DNA of 30,694 bases from the IMG/VR virus record IMGVR_UViG_3300021091_000277, positions 1 through 30,694 of that record. One strand, given 5' to 3'. The stretch's first letter is position 1. Every line of letters starts with the position of its first letter. The position numbers and the translations under genes were made by a program. This document shows, piece by piece, positions 2 to 29,472 of this stretch. The stretch is from a virus. The notes beneath the pieces were generated by a model, which made no database searches, had not been told where the DNA came from, and saw only the letters and a list, made by a program, of their open reading frames with translations.

Positions 2-1303
2 CCAAGCAATTTAGATAGTATTACAGATGTAATTTTTACAAATTTAGTACCAAATCAAATTTTAAAATATAACGGGACAAATTGGATTAATTCTGCCGAA
101 GCTGCTGGACCACAAGGACCTGCTGGTGCCACTGGAGCACAAGGACCTGCTGGTGCCACTGGAGCACAAGGACCACAAGGAGACACTGGACCTGCTGGTG
201 CCACTGGAGCACAAGGACCACAAGGAACTATTGGACCTGCTGGACCACAAGGACCACAAGGACCACAAGGACCACAAGGACCACAAGGAGATACCGGAGC
301 TATTGGTCCACAAGGAGTTCAAGGAATACCAGGAAATCCTGGATTGGTAAATTGGAATATAGCCGCAGATGACAGCACACAAAGGACAATTAACAGCGGT
401 GAAACTGTAAAATTTATAGGTGCTAGTAATATTACAACTTCTAGCGATGCGGAAGGAAACATTACAATAACAGGTCCTAATCTTACTCCTTTTGCGTTAA
501 CAGCAAATGTTCCTGTAAACTTAGACGACCTACAGGATGTACAATTGCCTAGTAATATACCTTCAGGATATGTTTTAAAATTTGACGGAGCAAAATGGAG
601 TGCAGCAGCGGATGCTACTTCTGGAGGATTAGGCACAGATGCTGATACACTAGACGGATTTGATAGTTCATATTTTTTAAATTATAATAATTTAAACAAT
701 AAACCTAACTTATATTTTCAACTGGCGGCTGATGATAGCACAATTAGAATTATTAATAACAATTCCACTATTCAGTTTATAGGAACTAATGGCATCAGTA
801 CCACAAGTTCTGCAGATGGAGTAATTACAATATCAGGAACTTTACAAGATCTTAGTCCATATGCCACAACTGCATTTGTTCTACAAGAATTAAACAATAA
901 ATTAAATCTGAATCAGCAATACAAATTTAATATTGCTGCGGACGACAGCACACAAGTAGTGATACAAAAAGATGAAACATTACAGATAAGTGGCGGGATA
1001 GGAATTTCAACAAACATAGATACAGAAGGTAAAATTACAATATCGGGATTTAGTGGAGACTATAATGATCTTACAAATAAACCTAGTGTTTTTGGTTCAC
1101 TACAAGTTTATGATGAAGGATCAACTCATTTTCAAAATATAAGTTCTATGAATTTTAAAGGACCAGGAGTCACTGTTACCAGTCCTATAAATGGCACTGT
1201 AGATGTGAATATAGATACAGCTTTGTTTGGTCTTAATTTAGACGGCGGACATCCTGATTCAATTTATGGTGGAGTTAATCCAATAGACGCGGGGCATATA
1301 TAA
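2..1303 (+). CDS. Collagen-like tail fibre protein (5' partial)
   Basis: The frame is open from the first bases of the window, so the true start lies upstream. About 35 leading residues precede a collagen-type Gly-X-Y stretch (positions 107-343, roughly 26 triplets rich in GPQ, GPA and GAT). The remainder is beta-rich sequence with three copies of an AADDST-containing module (AADDST at 362-379, 725-742 and 935-952), each followed by a GETV..I.G..GI-type segment. Collagen triple helices and such beta modules are typical of trimeric phage fibres, so this is probably a host-binding fibre. An Asp/Gly-rich tail ends in TAA, whose last base is the first base of the next ATG (TAATG), indicating coupling to the next gene. 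Fibre assignment is good; the exact tail position is unknown. Confidence 0.85.
107..343 (+). repeat. Collagen-type Gly-X-Y coding repeat
   Basis: Five perfect 9-bp units (GGACCACAA, coding GPQ) lie in tandem at 242-286. Three copies of a 27-bp unit beginning GGACCTGCTGGTGCC lie at 116-142, 143-169 and 188-214. All keep the Gly-X-Y frame, so copy-number change would lengthen or shorten the fibre shaft without breaking it. Confidence 0.9.
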
Positions 1304-10556: not shown

Positions 10557-10562
10557 TTTATG

Positions 10563-10570
10563 TTAAATAT
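10563..10570 (+). promoter_or_regulatory. Putative late-promoter motif (TTAAATAT)
   Basis: TTAAATAT lies 20 nt before the ATG at 10591, the same distance class as the motifs at 7881 and 18687. Confidence 0.4.
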
Positions 10571-10590: not shown

Positions 10591-10848
10591 ATGCGTAAAA
10601 GCACAAGATCAATTTTAACCGAACTTACTGATCTAGGAGTCAGCAGAAATAGAGATCATGTGATCGAAAGTAGAGGCAGTAATCTCATCGAAAGCGCAAT
10701 CAATCTCATAACTTTAATACGTGAACATTACGATTTAGAAACTGCTGCAGAAATTGAACGTCGGTTTATAAATGCTATTAAGAGTCAAGAGCCAATTAAA
10801 TTTAAACGTGGAATGAGAAAACTTAAAGAGAACAAAGATGTTAAATGA
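10591..10848 (+). CDS. Small helical hypothetical protein, 85 aa
   Basis: An 85-residue, very basic and probably all-helical protein: MRKSTRSILTELTDLG, then ESRGSNLIESAINLITLI, YDLETAAEIERRFINAIKSQEP and FKRGMRKLKENK. The ESRG.N.IESAINL and ERRFINAIK..EP.KF.RG..K pattern looks like a conserved small protein of T4-like marine phages, with no assigned function that I know of. AAAGGGA lies about 10 nt before the ATG. It overlaps the nucleotidyltransferase gene by 11 nt, so the two are likely co-translated. Confidence 0.7.
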   Translation: MRKSTRSILTELTDLGVSRNRDHVIESRGSNLIESAINLITLIREHYDLETAAEIERRFINAIKSQEPIKFKRGMRKLKENKDVK

Positions 10849-11629
10849 AGCAACAGGTAATGCTATATTCTCTGACACAGAACCAATTAATCCACTTTAT
10901 GTAAAATCTGTGAGAAAAATAGTAGCAGTTGAACTGGCTCAAATAGGTTTAGAATTAGTTCCTGTTGGCAGTAGTTGGAAAGAGGAACCCGACGAACGTA
11001 GTCCAGAAGAATATAGTGGGGATGTTGACACAATGGTAGATCTAGACAGTATAATAGCTGTGTTTAAGGTAGAACCTGATCTAAGTCGTAATAAGAAGGA
11101 CACTATAGAAGCTGCTGGACGCAGAGCACTTAGAAATTATTTTGAACAAAAGGGATATGAAGCAAAGCAAGCTGGTGTGAATGTTTTTGTAAGAGTGCCT
11201 TTTAAAGATAAATTTTACCAATTGGATATAGAATGTATACGTAAAGTTTCTAAAGTCAGTCGTTACCATCAACATGATATTCCTAAAGGCAGTCCTTATA
11301 AGGGTGTTAGTAAACAATTAATGCTATCGGTATTAGCTAAACAAAAAGGTTATTTGTATAGTGCATGGGAAGGTTTATTTACTAGAACTAGTGATAATAA
11401 AAAAGGCGAATTAGTAACTGATGATTGGGACGAAATAGCAGAACGTTTAATAGGCAAAAAAGATGGCAGAGCTATAGATAGTGTAGAAGCAATCATGCAG
11501 GCATTACCACCTAATCAAGGTTCGGCATTATTAGCATATGTAAAACAGGACAAAAATTGGGTAGAACGGAAACGACCTACTCAAGTAGGAACTAATGAGT
11601 GGTTTCGCAAGATTCTTAATAAATTATGA
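10838..11629 (+). CDS. Polymerase-beta-type nucleotidyltransferase-like protein
   Basis: A 263-residue protein. The pattern VGSSWKEE (G44-S45) ... YSGDVDTMVDLD (D62, D64) ... YQLDIE (D130) matches the GS / DxD / D triad of the polymerase-beta nucleotidyltransferase superfamily, which transfers NMP to nucleic acid, small molecules or protein. The C-terminal half (RYHQHDIPKGSPYKGVSKQ, WEGLFTR) is unassigned and could bind substrate. The residues after the start (LNE) fit the [IL]-x-E type of prohead-protease site. It overlaps both the 85-residue gene and the ligase-like gene (ATGA), implying joint expression with the latter. The substrate cannot be read; an inactive homologue is possible but less likely with all three carboxylates kept. 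Confidence 0.65.
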   Translation: MLNEATGNAIFSDTEPINPLYVKSVRKIVAVELAQIGLELVPVGSSWKEEPDERSPEEYSGDVDTMVDLDSIIAVFKVEPDLSRNKKDTIEAAGRRALRNYFEQKGYEAKQAGVNVFVRVPFKDKFYQLDIECIRKVSKVSRYHQHDIPKGSPYKGVSKQLMLSVLAKQKGYLYSAWEGLFTRTSDNKKGELVTDDWDEIAERLIGKKDGRAIDSVEAIMQALPPNQGSALLAYVKQDKNWVERKRPTQVGTNEWFRKILNKL

Positions 11630-12762
11630 GAGCTAAAGAATTTATAATTGAAAACACAGTGAAAAAACTGGGTCGTACTTTTAATCATTTAGAAGATCTA
11701 GTGTTCTTTTACGGCAGTCAAGGAACCATAGAAGCTCTTGAGCATATAAGAGAAATGCTAAGTGACCAACTTTCACCTAGTATTAGAGTAAAATGGGACG
11801 GTAATCCACAGATTTATTGGGGAAGAGAAATTAAAAATGGTCCATTAATTTTATCAGGACATAATGGATGGAGTAGAGGGGTTAAGACGGATAATCCTAA
11901 AGATTTAGCAAGGTTTATAGCATATGGAAGTGGCGATCCTAAGACAGACGCAGAAAAGAAAGCTCGCATAGCTTTTGCGAAACAGTTTGCTGGATTGTAT
12001 GACATTTTTGATCAGTCTACCCCTCTTGACTTTGTTGGATTTGTCTATGGTGATGCGTTATTTCTTAGTAAACCACAAATTGATGCAGAAGGAAATTATA
12101 CGTTCTGTCCTAATCCTAAAAGTGAAACCTGTTATCATGTTAATCCTAAAAGTAATTTAGGTAAACAGATATCAAACGCTCAAATTATGGTCGTAGGTCA
12201 TGCATATTATCCAAAATTTGGGTTAGACGACAGTGAGCAGCAACCTGTAGATGATTTCAGTCAATTTAATCAAAATGCTTCGCTTATTGTGCAGGGACCA
12301 GTATATGTTACAAATCCTACTAAATTTGATACTAAAAAGATCGATGAAGTAGAACAGGATCTTGCTAGTAGTTCAAGGCTTATAGATAGTTTTTTACAAG
12401 AAACTCCGGGATTGGGTGATTTAAAAAATATTCTTTATACCTATGTTAACCAAACAGCCAAATCAAAACAATTAGGAAATTTAGGTACTCAAAGTTTTCT
12501 CAGTTGGCTCAAGAGCAGCAAGGTAAGCACGCCTAAACAGGGTAAGATTGAACAAAAGCTTTCTGAGAATCAAGGTGCTTTAGATGCTATTTTTAATTTA
12601 GTTACTAAAATAATGACACTTAAGGATCAGATAATTGATCAAGTTGAGAACCAGCGTGGAGAGATATGGGCCACTAATGGTGAAGGCTATGTACGATATG
12701 GAGCAGGCAAACAGTTTGGTAATGTGAAACTAGTACCAAGAAAACGTTGGACTCCTAAATAA
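11626..12762 (+). CDS. ATP-grasp-independent ligase-like protein (KxDG nucleotidyltransferase), candidate internal head protein
   Basis: A 378-residue protein. VKWDGNPQIYWGRE holds K56-W-D-G, the motif I form (KxDG) of covalent nucleotidyltransferases: ATP-dependent DNA ligases, RNA ligases and capping enzymes, which form a lysyl-AMP. Matching downstream motifs are LDFVGFVYGDALFL (about 134-147, motif III/IIIa-like), EGYV (353-356, motif IV-like) and VKLVPR (367-372, motif V-like). An insertion of about 150 residues between the latter sets is unusual. The N-terminus MRAKEFIIEN closely resembles the T4 internal-protein capsid-targeting peptide (IPIII: MKTYQEFIAE), including an IxE cleavage-type site. 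Coupled by ATGA to the nucleotidyltransferase upstream and followed by a terminator. The ligase assignment rests on short motifs. Confidence 0.6.
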   Translation: MRAKEFIIENTVKKLGRTFNHLEDLVFFYGSQGTIEALEHIREMLSDQLSPSIRVKWDGNPQIYWGREIKNGPLILSGHNGWSRGVKTDNPKDLARFIAYGSGDPKTDAEKKARIAFAKQFAGLYDIFDQSTPLDFVGFVYGDALFLSKPQIDAEGNYTFCPNPKSETCYHVNPKSNLGKQISNAQIMVVGHAYYPKFGLDDSEQQPVDDFSQFNQNASLIVQGPVYVTNPTKFDTKKIDEVEQDLASSSRLIDSFLQETPGLGDLKNILYTYVNQTAKSKQLGNLGTQSFLSWLKSSKVSTPKQGKIEQKLSENQGALDAIFNLVTKIMTLKDQIIDQVENQRGEIWATNGEGYVRYGAGKQFGNVKLVPRKRWTPK

Positions 12763-12778
12763 TTTTATTCGCTGTAAT

Positions 12779-12800
12779 ATGCCCTATTAGGGCATTTTTT
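12779..12800 (+). terminator. Rho-independent terminator
   Basis: Stem ATGCCCT / AGGGCAT with a 3-nt loop (ATT), followed by a run of six T. It lies 17 nt after the ligase-like gene and ends that transcript. Confidence 0.85.
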
Positions 12801-12810
12801 AGTAAATTTG

Positions 12811-12818
12811 GTAAATAA
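12811..12818 (+). promoter_or_regulatory. Putative late-promoter motif (GTAAATAA)
   Basis: GTAAATAA lies directly after a terminator and about 50 nt before the next ATG, consistent with a separate late transcription unit for the 119-residue gene. Confidence 0.4.
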
Positions 12819-12867
12819 TAATACAAAGGCCTATTGAGAGTAGGACCAGCCAGCGAGGAGAATTAAA

Positions 12868-13227
12868 ATGGCAAGTGTAACAAGAGTAAATCCAACAGCA
12901 CCAGCTCTTGGTGATGTACAAAGAAATTTTCAACTAACAGTTTTTAAAGTTGTGTTAAGTAATACAGGTGTTGCAACAGCACGCACCGCTGATACAGCTA
13001 GAAATTTAACTGACGAAGTCGGCACAACATCGCAGATCATTCAAGTTAAGAGTGACGGTTTAGCGATGCTTCTTGTGGGTGATCGTCATAACCTAGATGT
13101 TGATGCATTGGCGATTCGTTTAGGTCGCATCGTTGCGGCAGGATCACTTACTTCATCTGGAGTATGGACATTCACAGGTGGCGGCACTTTAACAGTAACA
13201 GAGCCAACAAGTTTATATTCAATGTAA
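12868..13227 (+). CDS. Monocistronic small virion-type protein, 119 aa
   Basis: A 119-residue protein beginning MASVTRVNPTAPALGDVQRNFQL and rich in Thr, Val, Ala and Gly. The C-terminal half (TSSGVWTFTGGGTLTVTEP) is beta-rich. An excellent Shine-Dalgarno sequence (GAGGAG) precedes the ATG. The gene stands alone between two strong terminators with its own late-promoter motif, the layout expected of a highly expressed structural or decoration protein. This role is inference; no family is recognised. Confidence 0.7.
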   Translation: MASVTRVNPTAPALGDVQRNFQLTVFKVVLSNTGVATARTADTARNLTDEVGTTSQIIQVKSDGLAMLLVGDRHNLDVDALAIRLGRIVAAGSLTSSGVWTFTGGGTLTVTEPTSLYSM

Positions 13228-13240
13228 TTTGAATTATCAA

Positions 13241-13267
13241 AGGCCTAGTTTTTCTAGGCCTTTTTTT
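13241..13267 (+). terminator. Strong Rho-independent terminator
   Basis: Perfect 8-bp stem AGGCCTAG / CTAGGCCT with a TTTTT loop and a T7 tract, 14 nt after the 119-residue gene. Confidence 0.93.
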
Positions 13268-13274
13268 ATGACTG

Positions 13275-13282
13275 TTAAATAC
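13275..13282 (+). promoter_or_regulatory. Putative late-promoter motif (TTAAATAC)
   Basis: TTAAATAC lies directly after the terminator and only 4 nt before the ATG at 13287. If used, the mRNA would have almost no leader. Confidence 0.35.
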
Positions 13283-13286
13283 ACCG

Positions 13287-13661
13287 ATGATTTACAGTCT
13301 TTACACCCTAGTTGATATTACAGAGACTAGAACTTACCGTAGTCGCAATGACCTGGAAAGGCTCCAGCAACAGAACTTTGATACTGTTATTAATGTAATA
13401 AGCCTAAACGGAAATATTTACTACGATTACTCTCCTAAAAGGGTACCTGCTGATATTTTTGGAATGTCGAATCAAGAGTGCTGGTATTTTGAATGGCGTA
13501 TGGAATTAGAAGGATTATTTGAACGTAACAATGATCCAATTTTTAAACTTAAAAAAAGCTTTGAATTTGTGCCGTATATACACGGTTTAACTGAACCGGT
13601 ACAATTTGAAAGACCAATTTTTGTTCTTGGGCGTAATATTATTTTTGACTTTAGACACTAA
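13287..13661 (+). CDS. Conserved-type hypothetical protein, 124 aa
   Basis: A 124-residue protein opening MIYSLYTLVDITETRTYR and containing QQQNFDTVINVISLNGN, a WYFEWRMELEGLF segment and a C-terminal beta segment (GRNIIFDF). The LVDITET..YR...QQQNFDT opening is one I associate with conserved T4-like marine phage genes of unknown role. No Shine-Dalgarno sequence is visible, and the gene begins 20 nt after a strong terminator, so it may be read from a leaderless or near-leaderless late transcript. A late-promoter motif overlaps its stop. Confidence 0.65.
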   Translation: MIYSLYTLVDITETRTYRSRNDLERLQQQNFDTVINVISLNGNIYYDYSPKRVPADIFGMSNQECWYFEWRMELEGLFERNNDPIFKLKKSFEFVPYIHGLTEPVQFERPIFVLGRNIIFDFRH

Positions 13662-13665
13662 ATAT
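13658..13665 (+). promoter_or_regulatory. Putative late-promoter motif (CTAAATAT)
   Basis: CTAAATAT, identical to the motifs at 7881 and 18687, overlaps the stop of the previous gene and lies 58 nt before the preferred ATG at 13723. Confidence 0.45.
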
Positions 13666-13722
13666 ATTGTAAGGCACACAAAAGGCATTTTCAAAGGCTA
13701 TCTTTTTTTTAAAGGAATGAGA

Positions 13723-14124
13723 ATGTCTCTAAATGGTATAGACGAGCGTGTAGGCGTTGTTGAAACGAAGGTGCAGTATCTTAATGAAAAAATCGACGAC
13801 CTAAAGGTTGATGTAAAAAATCTGCATGATTGTCTTGACAGGATAGATAATTCATTTAAAGCAAAATTAGATGAAATGGTCATAGAATATCGAGTAAACC
13901 GTGATAGATATTATGAAATGTTAGCCGAAAATAAATTGGCTGCTGATAAAGCTCATAATGATCAAGAAGGATCAATTAGAAAAATAAGTGATAAACTGGA
14001 TTCATTTGAAAAATTTAAAACTAGAGGTACTTATATTGCTGTAGGTATTGCCGCATTTTTAGCAGGCACAGGATATCTTACTCATGGTGAAGTGGCAAAG
14101 ATAATTAAATTAATAGCCGGATAA
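13723..14124 (+). CDS. Coiled-coil protein with C-terminal membrane helix
   Basis: The frame opens at 13606, but the ATG at 13723 is preferred: AAAGGA lies 6 nt before it, and the upstream part overlaps the preceding gene. The 133-residue product has long heptad-like helices (VETKVQYLNEKIDDLKVDVKN, then NRDRYYEMLAENKLAADKA, KISDKLDSFEKFK) and ends in a hydrophobic segment at about residues 104-120 (TYIAVGIAAFLAGTGYL) and a short basic tail. A coiled coil plus a C-tail anchor suits a membrane-tethered accessory, for example a lysis or XhlA-like factor, but this is a guess. It lies 6 nt before the next gene. Confidence 0.7.
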   Translation: MSLNGIDERVGVVETKVQYLNEKIDDLKVDVKNLHDCLDRIDNSFKAKLDEMVIEYRVNRDRYYEMLAENKLAADKAHNDQEGSIRKISDKLDSFEKFKTRGTYIAVGIAAFLAGTGYLTHGEVAKIIKLIAG

Positions 14125-14130
14125 TTATGA

Positions 14131-14847
14131 ATGTATCTCCAAGAATTTCAAGAAGGTATAGTAGATCAAGCAGTCAAATTTAATGACAAACTTAATCCTT
14201 TACTGTTCGATAATAATAAATTAAAACAAATTGTAAGATATAAGTTACTTTTAATTGCACAAAATTTTGTAAACTTTATAGATATTCCAAGATTAAATCT
14301 AACTGATATAACATTAAGCGGCAGTAATGCAGCATATACCTATACCGAACATAGCGACATTGATCTACATCTAATTGTAGATGTACCAAGGGCAGCAGAA
14401 TTTCAGTATAAACAACTTTTTGACGCTAAGAAAAATCAATATAACTTTAACCATGATATAAGAATTAAAGGTATTGATGTTGAATTATACGTGCAAAACA
14501 GTAAAGATCCACATTTTAGTGCAGGAATCTACAGTGTATTAGATGATAAGTGGTTAGAAGAACCAAAGTTATTAAGAGCTAATATTAAAGATGATGATGT
14601 AGAGAAAAAGGTAGAAAATTACGTAAATAAAATAAAACTAGCACTTAGAACAAAAAATATTACAAAGGCAAATACTGTAAAATCAGAAATAACTAAACTT
14701 AGAAAATCAGGACTAGAAACTACTGGCGAATTTGGTGTGGAAAATATTGCTTTTAAAGTTTTGAGAACACAGGGCTGGATAGACAAGTTAAGGCAGCACA
14801 TCTATGACTTAGAGGATCAAAATCTAAGTTTAAAGGAAAGAAAATGA
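14131..14847 (+). CDS. Nucleotidyltransferase-like protein (GS/DxD/D), candidate internal protein
   Basis: A 238-residue protein. TLSGSNAAYTYTEHSDIDLHLIVD gives G64-S65 and D76-x-D78, and IDVELYV gives D116, the full metal-binding triad of the polymerase-beta nucleotidyltransferase superfamily. SDIDLHLIV is especially typical of the small nucleotidyltransferases. The C-terminal half is helical (KVENYVNKIKLALRT..., GVENIAFKVLRTQGWIDKLRQHI). The N-terminus MYLQEFQEGIV recalls T4 internal-protein leaders, with LQE as a possible prohead-protease site. It is coupled to the next gene by ATGA. The acceptor is unknown; it could modify host RNA, protein or a small molecule. Confidence 0.75.
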   Translation: MYLQEFQEGIVDQAVKFNDKLNPLLFDNNKLKQIVRYKLLLIAQNFVNFIDIPRLNLTDITLSGSNAAYTYTEHSDIDLHLIVDVPRAAEFQYKQLFDAKKNQYNFNHDIRIKGIDVELYVQNSKDPHFSAGIYSVLDDKWLEEPKLLRANIKDDDVEKKVENYVNKIKLALRTKNITKANTVKSEITKLRKSGLETTGEFGVENIAFKVLRTQGWIDKLRQHIYDLEDQNLSLKERK

Positions 14848-16088
14848 AGCGTGATGAAATATTAAGTGAATTTAAAAAAGGTGTAAAAGCCCGGAAATAT
14901 AATCGACATTATATAGATCCAGATAGAGAGTCTGAAACGCTGATAGCACCACGCACTCTTCCTAAGAAAAAAGATGATGTAAAAGAGCAAAGATCCGATT
15001 ATACAAAAGATGAAATTGTAGCAGTTCTTACTGGACAGAGAACTCAGGCAGAAGTTGATGCAGAAGCTTTAAGAACACGTGGTCCTGATAAAGGATCAAC
15101 AGCAACTCCTACTACAAGGCCTACTACTACGACAACAACTCCAGTGAAGGCTAAAGAAGCCACAGGTGACGCAGTTGGTAAAATTACAAAGGTAGATCCA
15201 AATACAAAAAAAGCAACAATAAGTAAACCTGATGGCACTACACAAGAAATAGACTCAACTGAACTTAAACCAACACCAGATGGCAAGATGCAAATGGATG
15301 CTCCAGATACAGATGAAATCAAAACTGGCACAGATGTGGTCAGCACAGAAGAAGCATTATCTCAGCCAGGTTATAGTCAAAGTCCTATACACGGCGGGGA
15401 AGACCATGATGAAATAAGTAAACTATTAGTTCAAAGGTTACGCAAACTTGCAGGATTACAAGAAGAACCAGATGCTGCCACAGGTCAATATGGTGATGGA
15501 CAGGTTGAAGCTACAGCAGAAGAAATAGGTAATGAGCCTAAAGAAGATGCGCAACTTGAAGCTGATGCGGGTAAAATAAATGGCTGGAATATTCCACCTA
15601 TGCCTGATATAAGTGGACTACAGCCAGGACAGACCAAAGATCTTGGTGACGGGCAGAGAGTAGAAATAGGTAGAGATGGAAACGTTAATTACTCAGGAGG
15701 ATTCGGTAAAGTGGTTTATAGTCCTCAGGGTAAGCCTCTTTCATACGATAGTCCTAGAGTTGGAGGTGTGGGAATGAAACGAGACTTAGGTACTGGAGAT
15801 ACTACTACATCATATAGTGCAGGCCCTATGCATGTAAGTCAAGTTCAAAATCCTCAAGGGCAGACTACTGCGTCTAAAGGTACTTTCAGAGTAGGGGACG
15901 GGTCCTTTAGTATAGATCAGGAATATAAAGATGGACAGCCTACCATACAAACAAGAACTGGCGCCGGTAGTCAAGCCAACGCAGATCTTGTAAAAAATCA
16001 AGACACACTCAACAGAGCTAGACAGGCTAGGCCTACTGCTGAAGATAAACAACTAGAAGCCTTGCTACACATCGCAGGACTAAGATGA
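14844..16088 (+). CDS. Disordered acidic protein with Thr-rich linker and repeated LAGL motif
   Basis: A 414-residue, low-complexity protein. The basic N-terminus (MKRDEILSEFKKGVKARKYNRHY) contains LSE, a possible prohead-protease site. Residues of about 86-100 are a Thr/Pro linker (TATPTTRPTTTTTTP). A short beta domain follows (ITKVDPNTKKATISKPDG). An RLRKLAGL motif (198-205) recurs as LLHIAGLR at the extreme C-terminus (407-414). The final third is Gly/Gln/Asp-rich. Disorder, acidity and a repeated short helix suggest a scaffold, head-core or other assembly protein rather than an enzyme. ATGA overlaps on both sides show tight coupling with its neighbours. Confidence 0.65.
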   Translation: MKRDEILSEFKKGVKARKYNRHYIDPDRESETLIAPRTLPKKKDDVKEQRSDYTKDEIVAVLTGQRTQAEVDAEALRTRGPDKGSTATPTTRPTTTTTTPVKAKEATGDAVGKITKVDPNTKKATISKPDGTTQEIDSTELKPTPDGKMQMDAPDTDEIKTGTDVVSTEEALSQPGYSQSPIHGGEDHDEISKLLVQRLRKLAGLQEEPDAATGQYGDGQVEATAEEIGNEPKEDAQLEADAGKINGWNIPPMPDISGLQPGQTKDLGDGQRVEIGRDGNVNYSGGFGKVVYSPQGKPLSYDSPRVGGVGMKRDLGTGDTTTSYSAGPMHVSQVQNPQGQTTASKGTFRVGDGSFSIDQEYKDGQPTIQTRTGAGSQANADLVKNQDTLNRARQARPTAEDKQLEALLHIAGLR

Positions 16089-16300
16089 AAGTCAGTGAAG
16101 TGTTAAAACATTTTACTATATTCATGACCAATGAGGAACGTGCTATGCTTCCTCGGTTGCGTCAGCCTAGACCGTTGAACAGTTTTCCAGAACACGACCA
16201 ATTCACAATAGAGGGTATGATTCGAAAAAGTTTGGTAATTAAGATAGGAGAACAAAGTCCTAAAGTTGTTGCAAATGAGTACAAAATTAAAAGATATTAA
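16085..16300 (+). CDS. Small hypothetical protein, 71 aa
   Basis: A 71-residue basic protein (MKVSEVLKHFTIFMTNEERAML, then FTIEGMIRKSLVIKIGEQSP, VVANEYKIKRY). The pattern TNEE..ML ... IRKSLV.KI ... VV.NE looks like a conserved phage miniprotein and may be a small helix-turn-helix-like fold, but the evidence is thin. It starts within the stop of the disordered protein (ATGA) and overlaps the next gene by 26 nt. Confidence 0.6.
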   Translation: MKVSEVLKHFTIFMTNEERAMLPRLRQPRPLNSFPEHDQFTIEGMIRKSLVIKIGEQSPKVVANEYKIKRY

Positions 16301-16700
16301 AAAATGGTGCGAAAAAGAGATACATGAAAATCTACCTGTAGCCATCTTATCAGATAAAAGTATTTCATATAAAAATTATAGAATTAAACAGAATAAAATA
16401 TATTGGGAATTAACTAAAAAAAATTCAGATATAGTTATTGAAAAATTTAACACAAAAACAAGTGCTTTATTGGCTGCTAAATTTTACGATTCATACAATT
16501 ACAATAAACTTGTTGACATTAAAAACTTAGACAGAAAATATTATTACAATCTGATAGATATTGAAATATATAAAGACAAATTAAAACGTACAAAAAATTT
16601 AGAAAGAAGAGATATTTTAATTAATAGGAAAGAACTTTCTGAACAAAAAATTGCACTTTATAAGCTTGAAATAGCTAATCATTTTAAAAACGAGTTTTGA
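16275..16700 (+). CDS. Basic coiled-coil hypothetical protein, 141 aa
   Basis: An in-frame TTG lies at 16266, but the ATG at 16275 is preferred. The 141-residue, Lys- and Tyr-rich protein has an N-terminal helix (LKDIKKWCEKEIHE), a beta segment (YKNYRIKQNKIYWELTKK), a FNTKTSALLAAKFYDSY segment and a long charged C-terminal helix (IYKDKLKRTKNLERRDILINRKEL...). No function is recognised. It overlaps the preceding gene, and its stop lies inside a late-promoter-like octamer belonging to the next gene. Confidence 0.6.
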   Translation: MSTKLKDIKKWCEKEIHENLPVAILSDKSISYKNYRIKQNKIYWELTKKNSDIVIEKFNTKTSALLAAKFYDSYNYNKLVDIKNLDRKYYYNLIDIEIYKDKLKRTKNLERRDILINRKELSEQKIALYKLEIANHFKNEF

Positions 16701-16706
16701 TAAATA
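16699..16706 (+). promoter_or_regulatory. Putative late-promoter motif (GATAAATA)
   Basis: GATAAATA, the closest match in the window to the T4 late consensus TATAAATA, lies 26 nt before the preferred ATG at 16733. Confidence 0.5.
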
Positions 16707-16732: not shown

Positions 16733-17650
16733 ATGCAGATTAGAGACCTTTCTCATCCAAAAAATAGTCAAAAATTAAATGAAAGTTTAGCTCAAAAATT
16801 TGGCTACAAATTAAATCTTGACAGTTTTACTCTAGAACAATTACAAATTGCACGCGATCGCGTATTGGATAAAATTGCTAATTTTGAACAAAGTAAAGAA
16901 TTTGATGCTGTGTATGAAAGCAATGAATACCAAAAAGATAGAATGTTTTTAGATATTATTACAACTGCAATAAGCGAACGTAGTCTCAGTCCTAAAGAAG
17001 AGAATAAAAAAGAAAAATATTTTAAAGGCATGAAAAAAGTAAGAGGCGATTTTCATAAACGGTATGGCGATAAAGGTGAAGAAGTGATGCATGCTACGGC
17101 GACGAAAATGGCTAAAAAAGAAAGCTTGGATGAAGCCATGGAAATACTTCGTGATGTTTTGAATCGTCGAACCCTTAAAGAAGGAGAAGAAGAAAAGGCC
17201 GCTCTAATTATGAGCGCAAGAGACATGGTTGATAAGATTACAGGTTGGCTAGAGGATACTGCTTCTCTTAAATCTGAAACCATGTTAGAACTAGTTGACT
17301 CTATAAGAGATGAATTAGGCAGCGATGTAAGTGGTCAGTTTGCTAGTAAAGTTAAACCAGCCTTAGATGAAATTTATCAAACTTTAGAAAATAATCGGCA
17401 AACACTAGCACAGGCAGTTGCAATACTAACAGGCGAAGAAGCTCCCGGATCTAATGAAGGTGCACCGCAACCTGCTCCGGGAGAAGAAATGACGGCCAGT
17501 CCAACAAGCGCAGAGGAATTTCCCACTGGTGATGCGTTTGCTGCCTCTGAACCTGCGACAGGCGGAGTAAGTCCTACAGGAAGAGAAAAACGTGAATCTA
17601 TTGATTATAGTCGTAGATTAGGCACAATTCTTAGTTCAAAAAAAAAATAA
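16733..17650 (+). CDS. Structural-type protein ending on an A10 run
   Basis: An in-frame TTG at 16697 overlaps a late-promoter motif. The ATG at 16733 is preferred because AGGAAT lies 8 nt upstream and the motif is then free. The 305-residue protein is mostly helical: MQIRDLSHPKNSQKLNESL, a KEEN..KEKYFKGMKKVRGDF..RYG segment, a RDMVDKITGWLEDTASLKSE region and a Pro/Gly/Ala-rich linker (about residues 235-285). It ends SSKKK at an A10 run directly followed by TAA. KLNE near the N-terminus fits a prohead-protease-type site. It is probably a virion or head-assembly component. A -1 shift in the A run would join it to the downstream frame (17635-17973). Confidence 0.65.
   Translation: MQIRDLSHPKNSQKLNESLAQKFGYKLNLDSFTLEQLQIARDRVLDKIANFEQSKEFDAVYESNEYQKDRMFLDIITTAISERSLSPKEENKKEKYFKGMKKVRGDFHKRYGDKGEEVMHATATKMAKKESLDEAMEILRDVLNRRTLKEGEEEKAALIMSARDMVDKITGWLEDTASLKSETMLELVDSIRDELGSDVSGQFASKVKPALDEIYQTLENNRQTLAQAVAILTGEEAPGSNEGAPQPAPGEEMTASPTSAEEFPTGDAFAASEPATGGVSPTGREKRESIDYSRRLGTILSSKKK
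17638..17647 (+). other. A10 homopolymer, candidate -1 frameshift or slippage site
   Basis: Ten A residues directly precede the zero-frame TAA (17648-17650). The run contains A AAA AAA heptamers, the simplest slippery sequence. A -1 shift gives ...SSKKK-ITESAETLIRILLQ... and runs on to 17973. The downstream frame has no ATG and no Shine-Dalgarno sequence near its beginning. Confidence 0.5.
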
Positions 17651-25995: not shown

Positions 25996-26382
25996 ATGGC
26001 ATATTCTTCACAAGTTTTAGATCATTACGAAAATCCACGTAATGTAGGCAGCTTCGAAAAAAGTGATACTAGTGTAGGAACAGGAATGGTAGGGGCCCCT
26101 GCCTGTGGCGATGTAATGAAACTACAGATAAAGGTAGAAGATGGCGTGATAAAGGATGCTAAATTCAAAACCTATGGATGTGGCTCAGCCATTGCAAGTA
26201 GTTCGCTTGTTACGGAATGGGTTAAAGGTAAATCGTTAGAAGAAGCGGGAATGATAAAAAACACTCACATAGCTCAAGAGTTGGCACTTCCTCCTGTCAA
26301 GATTCATTGTTCAATCCTAGCAGAAGATGCGATAAAAGCTGCTGTAGAAGACTATAAGAAAAAACATGATATCTCTAACTGA
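25996..26382 (+). CDS. iscU: Iron-sulfur cluster scaffold IscU
   Basis: A 128-residue IscU of full typical length. It keeps the three cluster cysteines and the assembly Asp: GAPACGDVMKLQ (C37, D39), TYGCGSAIASSS (C62) and KIHCSILAEDAIKAA (H104, C105). LPPVK (98-102), the peptide recognised by the HscA chaperone, is intact, although no hscA or hscB is seen in this window. IscU receives sulfur from IscS and builds [2Fe-2S] clusters. GAAAGGGA lies about 7 nt before the ATG. It overlaps iscA by 17 nt. Together with IscS downstream this gives the ISC core, presumably working with host HscAB and ferredoxin. Confidence 0.96.
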   Translation: MAYSSQVLDHYENPRNVGSFEKSDTSVGTGMVGAPACGDVMKLQIKVEDGVIKDAKFKTYGCGSAIASSSLVTEWVKGKSLEEAGMIKNTHIAQELALPPVKIHCSILAEDAIKAAVEDYKKKHDISN

Positions 26383-26686
26383 AGCTGCGGCATTAAAAGT
26401 AAAGTATAATCTTGAAAAACGAGGCAAAGGCTTAGGAATTAGGGTAGGAGTAAAAACTACAGGTTGTAGCGGACTTTCTTACGTATTAGAATACGTTGAC
26501 ACAATTTTCGATGGAGACTTGATTTATGAAAACAACGGAGTTTTAATATGTGTGGATCAGCGTAATTTAATTTATCTCGATGGGCTTCAAATGGATTGGG
26601 TAAAACAAGGATTAAATGAAGGTTTTGAGTTTACTAATCCAAATGAAAAAAGTAAATGCGGGTGTGGTGAAAGTTTTAGTGTCTAA
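26366..26686 (+). CDS. iscA: A-type iron-sulfur carrier IscA
   Basis: A 106-residue A-type carrier (HesB/IscA/SufA family). ISLTEAAALKVKY opens the domain; TTGCSGLSYVLEY holds C34 and KSKCGCGESFSV holds C98 and C100, the complete three-cysteine set binding iron or an iron-sulfur cluster. GFEFTNPNEKSKCGCGESF is the usual family C-terminus. It would accept clusters from IscU and deliver them to target enzymes. The start lies inside the 3' end of iscU, so the two are translationally linked. Confidence 0.95.
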   Translation: MISLTEAAALKVKYNLEKRGKGLGIRVGVKTTGCSGLSYVLEYVDTIFDGDLIYENNGVLICVDQRNLIYLDGLQMDWVKQGLNEGFEFTNPNEKSKCGCGESFSV

Positions 26687-28260: not shown

Positions 28261-29472
28261 ATGATGAACAGACCAATTTACTTAGACTATTCTTCTACTA
28301 CTCCGGTTGATCCTAGGGTAGCAGGCACAATGATTAAGTTTCTTACAGAAGAGTTTGGAAATCCTGCCAGCAGAAGCCATAGCTTCGGTTGGGAAGCAGA
28401 AGCAGCAGTTGAACAAGCAAGGAAAAATGTCGCAGAATTAGTAGGTTGTGATGCCAAGGAAATTATTTGGACAAGCGGCGCTACTGAAAGTATTAATTTA
28501 GCAATTAAAGGAGCTGCTAAATTTAACCAACTTAAAGGTAGACATATAATTACTGTAAAAACAGAACACAAGGCAACATTAGACACCTGTAGAGAGCTTG
28601 AAAGAGACGGGTATGAAGTAAGTTATCTTAATGTTAATGATAAAGGTATTTTAGAAACAGATGCGTTTATATCAGCTATCCGTGCTGATACTGTAATTGC
28701 TAGTGTAATGATGGTTAATAATGAAATTGGAGTTATACAAGATATAGATAAAATTGGGAAAATTTGTAGAGACAATAAGATTATATTCCATGTTGATGCT
28801 GCCCAGGCTACTGGGAAAGTAGAGATAGACCTTAACAATTTAGCTGTTGATCTTATGTCTTTTTCTGCTCACAAATCTTACGGACCAAAAGGTATCGGAG
28901 CACTATTTGTTAGACGTAAACCTAGAGTAAGAATTGAAGCGCAGATACACGGCGGAGGGCATGAACGAGGCATGAGATCTGGAACTTTACCCACACACCA
29001 GATTGTAGGAATGGGAGAAGCATTTAAACTGGCAAAAGAGGAAATGTCTGTTGAAATCTTAAGGATAAAACTACTAAGAGATAAATTGTGGAATGGACTA
29101 AGGGACTTAGAAGAAGTTTATTTAAACGGTTGTGAAAGTCAAAGGGTTCCTCATAACCTTAATGTAAGTTTCAATTATATTGAGGGCGAAAGTATGATGA
29201 TGAGTCTAAAAGACATGGCTGTTAGTTCAGGCAGTGCCTGCACCAGTGCTAGTCTAGAACCCAGTTATGTGCTAAGAGCACTTGGCAGGAGTGATGAACT
29301 TGCTCATAGCAGTATTAGATTTACAATAGGAAGATTTACCACAGAAGACGAAGTTGATAAGGCTATAAAATTAGTCAAAGATAAAGTAGGCAAGCTAAGA
29401 GAATTAAGTCCATTATGGGAAATGCATAAAGATGGTATAGATTTAAATACTATTGAATGGGCTACCCATTAA
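28261..29472 (+). CDS. iscS: Cysteine desulfurase IscS
   Basis: A 403-residue PLP enzyme removing sulfur from cysteine and passing it to IscU. Landmarks: [35 protein letters not shown] (H103), [10 protein letters not shown] (D179, Q182), [20 protein letters not shown] (PLP lysine K205), [12 protein letters not shown] and [21 protein letters not shown] (catalytic C327). It is almost the same length as E. coli IscS (404), and its C-terminus [20 protein letters not shown] closely follows the E. coli IscS tail that docks IscU, identifying it as housekeeping IscS rather than SufS. No Shine-Dalgarno sequence precedes the ATG; a second Met follows at once. It lies about 1.6 kb from iscA on the same strand. 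Confidence 0.96.

What the first reader, a model, noticed from the sequence alone, without database searches (positions are those of the whole stretch)
11626..14880. T4-style capsid-targeting peptides on enzyme-like proteins: candidate injected effectors
The ligase-like protein starts MRAKEFIIEN, very close to the T4 IPIII capsid-targeting leader MKTYQEFIAE and with an IxE site where the gp21-type prohead protease would cut. The nucleotidyltransferase at 14131 (MYLQEFQEG), the disordered protein at 14844 (MKRDEILSEF) and the proteins at 10838 (MLNE) and 16733 (KLNE) also have [IL]-x-E near the start. If real, these enzymes would be packaged in the head and injected with the DNA, as T4 Alt and the internal proteins are.
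Basis: partly seen in the sequence, partly recalled or inferred. Interest (0 to 1): 0.75.

Follow-up and report, generated by a model that had tools for sequence, protein, structure and literature searches.

The report
Head-packaging leaders on phage enzymes
Two proteins in this freshwater T4-like phage, and probably a third, begin with a short peptide like the one phage T4 uses to pack proteins into its head. The same kind of tag sits on dozens of unrelated proteins in related phages, so it may reveal which phage proteins travel with the DNA into the bacterium.

Summary
The N-termini quoted are all in the sequence. The loose [IL]-x-E motif alone is near chance, but the stricter T4-type leader (acidic/polar–F/L/I–I/L/F–x–Glu) is real for the 11626 product (MRAKEFIIE|N) and the 14844 product (MKRDEILSE|F), plausible for 14131, and weak for 10838 and 16733.

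The decisive evidence lies outside the window. In ~110 related contigs, 28 protein families carry the strict leader, against 1.3 expected after shuffling. One sub-form, MRAxEF[ILM]xE, precedes 33 unrelated protein families in IMG/VR. In cyanophage S-CREM2, whose virion was analysed by mass spectrometry, F[FILM]xE within ten residues occurs on 5 of 28 detected non-structural proteins and 0 of 167 undetected ones. The S-CREM2 homologue of the 14131 product was detected in the virion.

Relatives encode the gp21-type protease, and their capsid protein has a matching site. The 10591 and 16733 genes have T4-like late promoter elements. 11626 is a KxDG ligase-like enzyme; 10838 and 14131 are Pol-beta-type nucleotidyltransferases.

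Best reading: a T4-type capsid-targeting system loading enzymes into the head. Packaging is well supported by inference; cleavage and injection in this phage are not shown.

The parts
10562..10569 (+). GTTAAATA, a late-promoter-like element 21 nt before the 10591 start codon
   Evidence: Conserved as (A)GGTTAAATA or CGGTAAATA at about the same distance in some 25 relatives; resembles the clade's GATAAATA late element. Function inferred.
10591..10848 (+). Small conserved protein MRKSTRSILTEL, first gene of the cassette
   Evidence: Matches PHROG 11854 'virion structural protein', E 2.6e-13; N-terminal motif conserved in the family.
10838..11629 (+). Pol-beta-type nucleotidyltransferase; candidate very short leader MLNE|A (weak)
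   Evidence: Model mean pLDDT 89.5; best PDB matches are DNA polymerases beta/lambda (E about 1e-6); invariant G44, D62-x-D64, nearly invariant S45. A distant relative, L270, carries a full MRAHEFLLE leader.
11626..12762 (+). DUF6267 protein, KxDG ligase-like covalent nucleotidyltransferase
   Evidence: Pfam DUF6267 E 2e-21; invariant K56-W57-D58-G59; VIA second look led by RNA and DNA ligases, Z up to 6.3; Foldseek E only 0.12.
11626..11652 (+). Capsid-targeting-type leader MRAKEFIIE, predicted cut before N10
   Evidence: Conservation; same leader on unrelated families; residues 1-11 have pLDDT under 50.
12779..12795 (+). Terminator-like hairpin behind the 10591-12762 gene group
   Evidence: Consensus scan only.
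14131..14847 (+). Nucleotidyltransferase; homologue of S-CREM2 gp156
   Evidence: Pfam NTP_transf_2 E 2.8e-4; G64, D76, D78, E118 invariant and S65 nearly so; S-CREM2 gp156 E 8e-36, detected in virions with 6 unique peptides (PMC10665884).
14131..14154 (+). Candidate leader MYLQEFQE; cut possible after E5 (YLQE|F) or E8 (FQE|G)
   Evidence: L3 and E5 (nearly) invariant in the family; S-CREM2 gp156 begins MKKLISE|L and S-CRM01 g125 has the same LISE.
14844..16088 (+). Disordered protein with leader MKRDEILSE, predicted cut before F10
   Evidence: 22 of 23 distinct members of the relatives' family have the motif in the first 13 residues, none at four interior control stretches; relatives MKRNEIISEF, MKRNEILGEH, MKIEQLLNEH.
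16085..16300 (+). 71-aa protein MKVSEVLKHF; relatives MKINELI(K/G)EF
   Evidence: Leader-like in relatives, p=0.02 in the window; the cleavage Glu is missing in the window copy.
16699..16706 (+). GATAAATA late-promoter element, 26 nt before the 16733 ATG
   Evidence: Same element before the orthologues in two 364-383 kb relatives.
16733..17650 (+). Late gene, probable virion protein; conserved LNE|S at residues 15-18
   Evidence: PHROG 14154 'virion structural protein' E 2.6e-8; LNES or LNEG kept in relatives. Not a typical targeting leader.

Best explanation
The 11626 and 14844 proteins, and probably 14131, carry a T4-type capsid-targeting leader of about nine residues. They are made late and the leader puts them into the prohead core. 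The gp21-type (peptidase S77) prohead protease then cuts after the conserved glutamate, and the mature enzymes stay in the head with the DNA. They would enter the next host with the DNA, where the ligase-like protein and the nucleotidyltransferases could act on nucleic acid or on host defence before any phage gene is expressed. Shown here: the leader, its conservation, its sharing across unrelated families, the protease and a matching capsid cleavage site in relatives, late-type promoter elements at the cassette, and published virion detection of a homologue. Inferred: targeting, cleavage and injection in this phage, and the substrate of the enzymes.
For: T4 leaders read from the record: ipII and ipIII MKTYQEFIAE|A, alt MELITELFDE|D, gp24 MAKINELLRE|S, gp22 MLKEQLIAE|A. 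S-CREM2 virion mass spectrometry (PMC10665884 Table 3) set against N-termini: F[FILM]xE in the first 10 residues on 5/28 detected non-structural proteins and 0/167 undetected, Fisher p=4e-5. The five are gp6 SAM lyase MKDFDSFLEE, gp13 MKDLHSFLTE, gp14 kinase MKRFDAFLTE, gp136 MQTFSMFFSE and gp154 cytidylyltransferase MKNFSSFLTE. gp12, annotated Cas9, has FASFMAE at residues 19-25. The S-CRM01 kinase reported in its virion begins MISFDQFLSE. In the clade: 28 families with the strict leader against 1.3 after N-terminal shuffling, maximum 7. MRAxEF[ILM]xE in IMG/VR: 124 ORFs, 122 of at least 60 aa, 33 unrelated families, an upstream in-frame stop within 30 codons in 107 of 123. Known enzymes carry the leader ahead of their domain: Fe-SOD with 20 residues before the Pfam domain, pterin dehydratase. 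The same family can carry different leaders: HAD-like MRASDFINE versus MKILDIITE. Protease S77 in relatives. Capsid protein with ...YLAE|SATGG. S-CREM2 gp156, homologue of 14131, is in virions.
Against: No virion data exist for this clade. The window has no protease gene, and the contig is a fragment of 30.7 kb. The window sequences alone score modestly. DUF6267 proteins of marine cyanophages and of S-CRM01 lack the leader, so it is not essential to the enzyme. The S-CREM2 authors could not exclude contamination of the virion preparation. S-CREM2 gp199 has the motif by residue 12 but was not detected. Some leader proteins could be core components destroyed in the head rather than injected.
Confidence: 0.75

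Rival explanations
1. Leader-bearing proteins are prohead core or scaffold components, like T4 gp67, gp68 and gp22, that are targeted and then digested or retained as structure, not injected effectors.
For: T4 gp22 and gp24 share the leader form. Several leader proteins are small, basic or disordered, for example 14844 and MRAKEFIIERKKRRKKSKSR. Two cassette genes match 'virion structural' PHROGs.
Against: Many carry known or predicted enzymes: ligase-like, nucleotidyltransferases, SOD, cytidylyltransferase, pterin dehydratase, SLT. In S-CREM2 leader-bearing enzymes persist in finished virions.
Confidence: 0.2
2. The motif is a by-product of N-terminal composition or translation constraints in these phages (Lys/Arg, then hydrophobic, then Glu).
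For: The loose [IL]xE form is frequent at N-termini generally.
Against: Shuffling the N-terminal residues gives 1.3 families against 28 observed. The conservation pattern keeps P4, P3 and P1 while P2 is the most variable position. Association with virion detection, p=4e-5.
Confidence: 0.05
3. The 14131, 10838 and 16733 proteins reach the virion, if at all, by another route, and their short [IL]xE motifs are chance.
For: Matrix scores p=0.11, 0.58 and 0.88. Many 10838 relatives start MSKNVIF without a site.
Against: 14131: invariant E5 in 27 relatives and a virion-detected homologue with LISE. 10838: MI(L)xE[GAS] kept in most of the family and a distant relative with the full leader.
Confidence: 0.45

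Closest known systems
T4 capsid-targeting sequence of internal proteins IPI-III and Alt
   Same: About 10 N-terminal residues, E-[FLI]-[ILF]-x-E, on unrelated proteins; cut by gp21 in T4. PMC3012670 describes T-even internal proteins as diverse with only the targeting sequence in common; PMC12373910 shows Ip2 and Ip3 block type IV restriction enzymes.
   Different: Different phage lineage; the cargo includes predicted enzymes (ligase-like, nucleotidyltransferases, SOD, HAD-like) rather than only small inhibitors; the leader has a recurrent MRAxEF form; processing and injection untested.
Virion-associated enzymes of cyanophages (S-CREM2, S-CRM01, S-SCSM1)
   Same: Enzymes found in virions by mass spectrometry, including a homologue of the 14131 product.
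   Different: Those reports do not mention a targeting leader (no capsid-targeting paper on cyanophages was found apart from one T4 review) and leave contamination open.
Ejection proteins of giant Salmonella phage SPN3US
   Same: Many head proteins carried with the DNA and processed by a prohead protease (PMC7411985, PMC10052503 abstracts).
   Different: Another phage group; its propeptides were not compared here.

Membership tests
T4-type capsid-targeting sequence / internal head proteins | Short N-terminal leader ending in [ILF]-x-E shared by otherwise unrelated proteins | tested here: met
   11626 and 14844; 28 strict-leader families versus 1.3 shuffled; 33 unrelated families with MRAxEF[ILM]xE.
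T4-type capsid-targeting sequence / internal head proteins | gp21-type prohead protease in the same phage | tested here: inconclusive
   Window is a fragment without it. Present in 3 of 10 related records, the three largest, and in 4 of 17 further leader-bearing records, including all three over 140 kb.
T4-type capsid-targeting sequence / internal head proteins | Same cleavage rule in a known substrate (capsid protein) | tested here: met
   gp23 of three relatives has ...RKYLAE|SATGG or LSE|SASTG ahead of the mature part; the cut itself is inferred.
T4-type capsid-targeting sequence / internal head proteins | Proteins present in the mature virion | tested here: inconclusive
   No data for this phage. 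Homologue of 14131 (S-CREM2 gp156) and leader-bearing S-CREM2 enzymes detected.
T4-type capsid-targeting sequence / internal head proteins | Leader removed and proteins injected | not testable with these tools
   Needs N-terminal peptides from virions and infection assays.
T4-type capsid-targeting sequence / internal head proteins | Late expression | tested here: inconclusive
   GATAAATA before 16733 and GTTAAATA before 10591, conserved; no transcript data.
Covalent nucleotidyltransferase (RNA/DNA ligase) superfamily: 11626 | KxDG motif I | tested here: met
   K56-W57-D58-G59 invariant in 36 sequences.
Covalent nucleotidyltransferase (RNA/DNA ligase) superfamily: 11626 | Ligase fold | tested here: inconclusive
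   Foldseek top matches are DNA ligases but E 0.12; VIA Z 5-6.3, nearly all RNA or DNA ligases, below the level the tool calls safe.
Pol-beta-type nucleotidyltransferase: 10838 | GS...DxD catalytic motif and fold | tested here: met
   G44 and D62-x-D64 invariant, S45 nearly so; PDB polymerase beta/lambda matches E about 1e-6.
Pol-beta-type nucleotidyltransferase: 14131 | GS...DxD...E motif | tested here: met
   G64, D76, D78 and E118 invariant, S65 nearly so; Pfam NTP_transf_2.

The most novel reading that the evidence does not exclude
Environmental T4-like phages use an interchangeable N-terminal leader as a general delivery tag for dozens of unrelated proteins, among them ligases, nucleotidyltransferases, superoxide dismutase, HAD-like proteins, kinases, SAM lyase and a Cas9-like nuclease. 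Phage-injected effectors could then be listed from sequence alone.
Probability: 0.6. Interest if true: 0.8.

Novelty: new variant of a known kind. Interest (0 to 1): 0.68.

Why it matters
T4's capsid-targeting sequence is best known from a few small anti-restriction proteins and Alt. If the same kind of leader marks packaged enzymes in abundant aquatic T4-like phages, it offers a sequence-only test for which unknown phage proteins are delivered with the DNA. It also speaks to a question the S-CREM2 authors left open, whether enzymes found in cyanophage virions are cargo or contaminants: those with the leader are the ones expected to be cargo. The predicted cuts are exact to the residue and can be checked in existing or new virion proteomes.

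Tried and rejected
T4 late promoter TATAAATA as a timing test: only one in the window against 5 expected, so not used by this clade; k-mer enrichment then found GATAAATA (31 versus 2.75 expected). The loose [IL]xE motif as evidence: rejected as near chance. F[FILM]xE alone across the three large relatives: few hits, because their leaders use L or I at P4 and start calls vary. Pfam and PHROGs on most MRAxEF cargo: no match. I suspected ADP-ribosyltransferase-like cargo (L187, L251, L279) by eye; Pfam, and for L279 a PDB sequence search, gave nothing, so I do not claim it. Direct sequence match of 11626 to S-CREM2 proteins: none. My first single-linkage family count lumped unrelated proteins (10 families); the coverage-aware count is 28.

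Full report
What was checked. The window is a 30.7 kb fragment of a virus record, with tail and fibre genes upstream and nrdA/nrdB downstream. The N-termini named in the finding are present. T4's own leaders, read from its record, are MKTYQEFIAE|A for ipII and ipIII, MELITELFDE|D for alt and MAKINELLRE|S for gp24; the bars mark the expected cut, and the X04567 record annotates the ten-residue ipIII leader as removed. The 11626 product (MRAKEFIIE|N) and the 14844 product (MKRDEILSE|F) have the same form.

Is it more than chance? On the window alone, only modestly: p=0.028 and 0.013 with a matrix from known or probable sites, and no support for 10838 or 16733. Loose [IL]xE motifs occur on many ordinary proteins. 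The weight comes from relatives. In the 11626 family (DUF6267) the leader reads M-R-A-x-E-F-[LI]-x-E; the residue between the hydrophobic pair and the glutamate is the most variable, and a linker of variable length follows before the conserved GRAFNHLEDLVFF domain. 43 of 51 distinct members keep the strict motif close to the domain. Of the other eight sequences, those with an inserted NCSNPKGFSQKAHCAGRKK segment carry the leader further upstream, for example MRAFEIITEKWS. The predicted structure leaves residues 1-11 at low confidence.

Sharing across unrelated proteins. In about 110 related contigs, 28 families carry a strict leader against a mean of 1.3 and a maximum of 7 in 300 shuffles of the N-terminal residues. 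Searching IMG/VR for DNA encoding MRAxEF[ILM]xE gave 124 ORFs before the scan stopped at its limit; 122 are at least 60 aa or run off the contig, 107 of 123 have an in-frame stop within 30 codons upstream, and they fall into 33 unrelated families once the first 12 residues are removed. Known enzymes carry the leader ahead of their normal start: an iron superoxide dismutase beginning MSYEFIKGFIAEG, a pterin dehydratase MKIKDLIQEG, and cytidylyltransferase-like proteins MRLRxLFE (by motif, no Pfam match for the one tested). One HAD-like family (by its FDIDDTLF motif) has MRASDFINE in one phage and MKILDIITE in another, so the leader is interchangeable.

Link to virions. The S-CREM2 paper lists 52 virion proteins (PMC10665884). 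Comparing their N-termini with the rest of the genome: F[FILM]xE in the first ten residues on 5 of 28 detected non-structural proteins and 0 of 167 undetected proteins, p=4e-5. They include a SAM lyase, a kinase and a cytidylyltransferase; the protein annotated Cas9 has the motif at residues 19-25. The S-CRM01 kinase that the same paper cites as virion-associated begins MISFDQFLSE. S-CREM2 gp156, homologue of the 14131 product (E 8e-36), was detected with six peptides and begins MKKLISE|L. The authors did not connect this to a targeting leader and left contamination open.

The machinery. Three large relatives encode portal, gp21-type protease (Pfam S77), scaffold and gp23 in T4 order, and their gp23 has a candidate site YLAE|SATGG or LSE|SASTG after about 43 residues. 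The clade's late promoter element is GATAAATA, found by enrichment. It stands before tail and baseplate genes and, in the window and two relatives, before the 16733 gene. A related GTTAAATA stands before 10591 in about 25 relatives.

The cargo. 10838 and 14131 are Pol-beta-type nucleotidyltransferases with intact catalytic motifs. 11626 has the invariant KWDG of covalent nucleotidyltransferases; fold comparison points to RNA and DNA ligases but only moderately. A role in nucleic-acid repair or in countering host defence on entry is my inference, by analogy with T4's injected internal proteins.

Mechanism and confidence. Packaging by a T4-type targeting leader: about 0.8 for 11626 and 14844, 0.65 for 14131, 0.4 for 10838, 0.3 for 16733. 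Injection follows from T4 precedent and is not shown. DUF6267 in marine cyanophages and S-CRM01 lacks the leader, so packaging is not a universal property of that family.

Novelty. The kind of system is known from T4. What is new, as far as the held literature shows (one search found one paper joining capsid targeting with cyanophages, a T4 review), is its breadth of cargo in environmental T4-like phages and its agreement with virion proteomics.

Noticed in passing
window 25996-26382, 26366-26686, 28261-29472: By eye, IscU-like, IscA-like and IscS-like genes: a phage-borne iron-sulphur cluster assembly set; relatives also encode a DnaK/HscA-like protein (G001 272332-274209).
   Followed up: no
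G001, G005, G006 (364, 270, 383 kb relatives): Clade-specific late promoter element GATAAATA, 31 upstream regions against 2.75 expected, usually about 20-30 nt before the start codon; T4's TATAAATA is not enriched in the window.
   Followed up: partly
L122 7704-10313 (S-CREM2 gp12): Protein annotated Cas9 and detected in virions has FASFMAEA at residues 19-26; if its start codon is misplaced the leader would be near the true N-terminus.
   Followed up: no
G001 284529-285083: Fe-superoxide dismutase with leader MSYEFIKGFIAEG between nrdA and nrdB; the cluster has four distinct members in relatives, the window has none.
   Followed up: partly
L278 178-549: The largest MRAxEF family (61 of the ORFs found) is a 124-aa protein without Pfam or PHROGs match.
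   Followed up: no
window 2-1303: Tail-like protein with collagen-type GPQGPQ repeats; the long reverse-strand open frames there are probably artefacts of the repeats.
   Followed up: no
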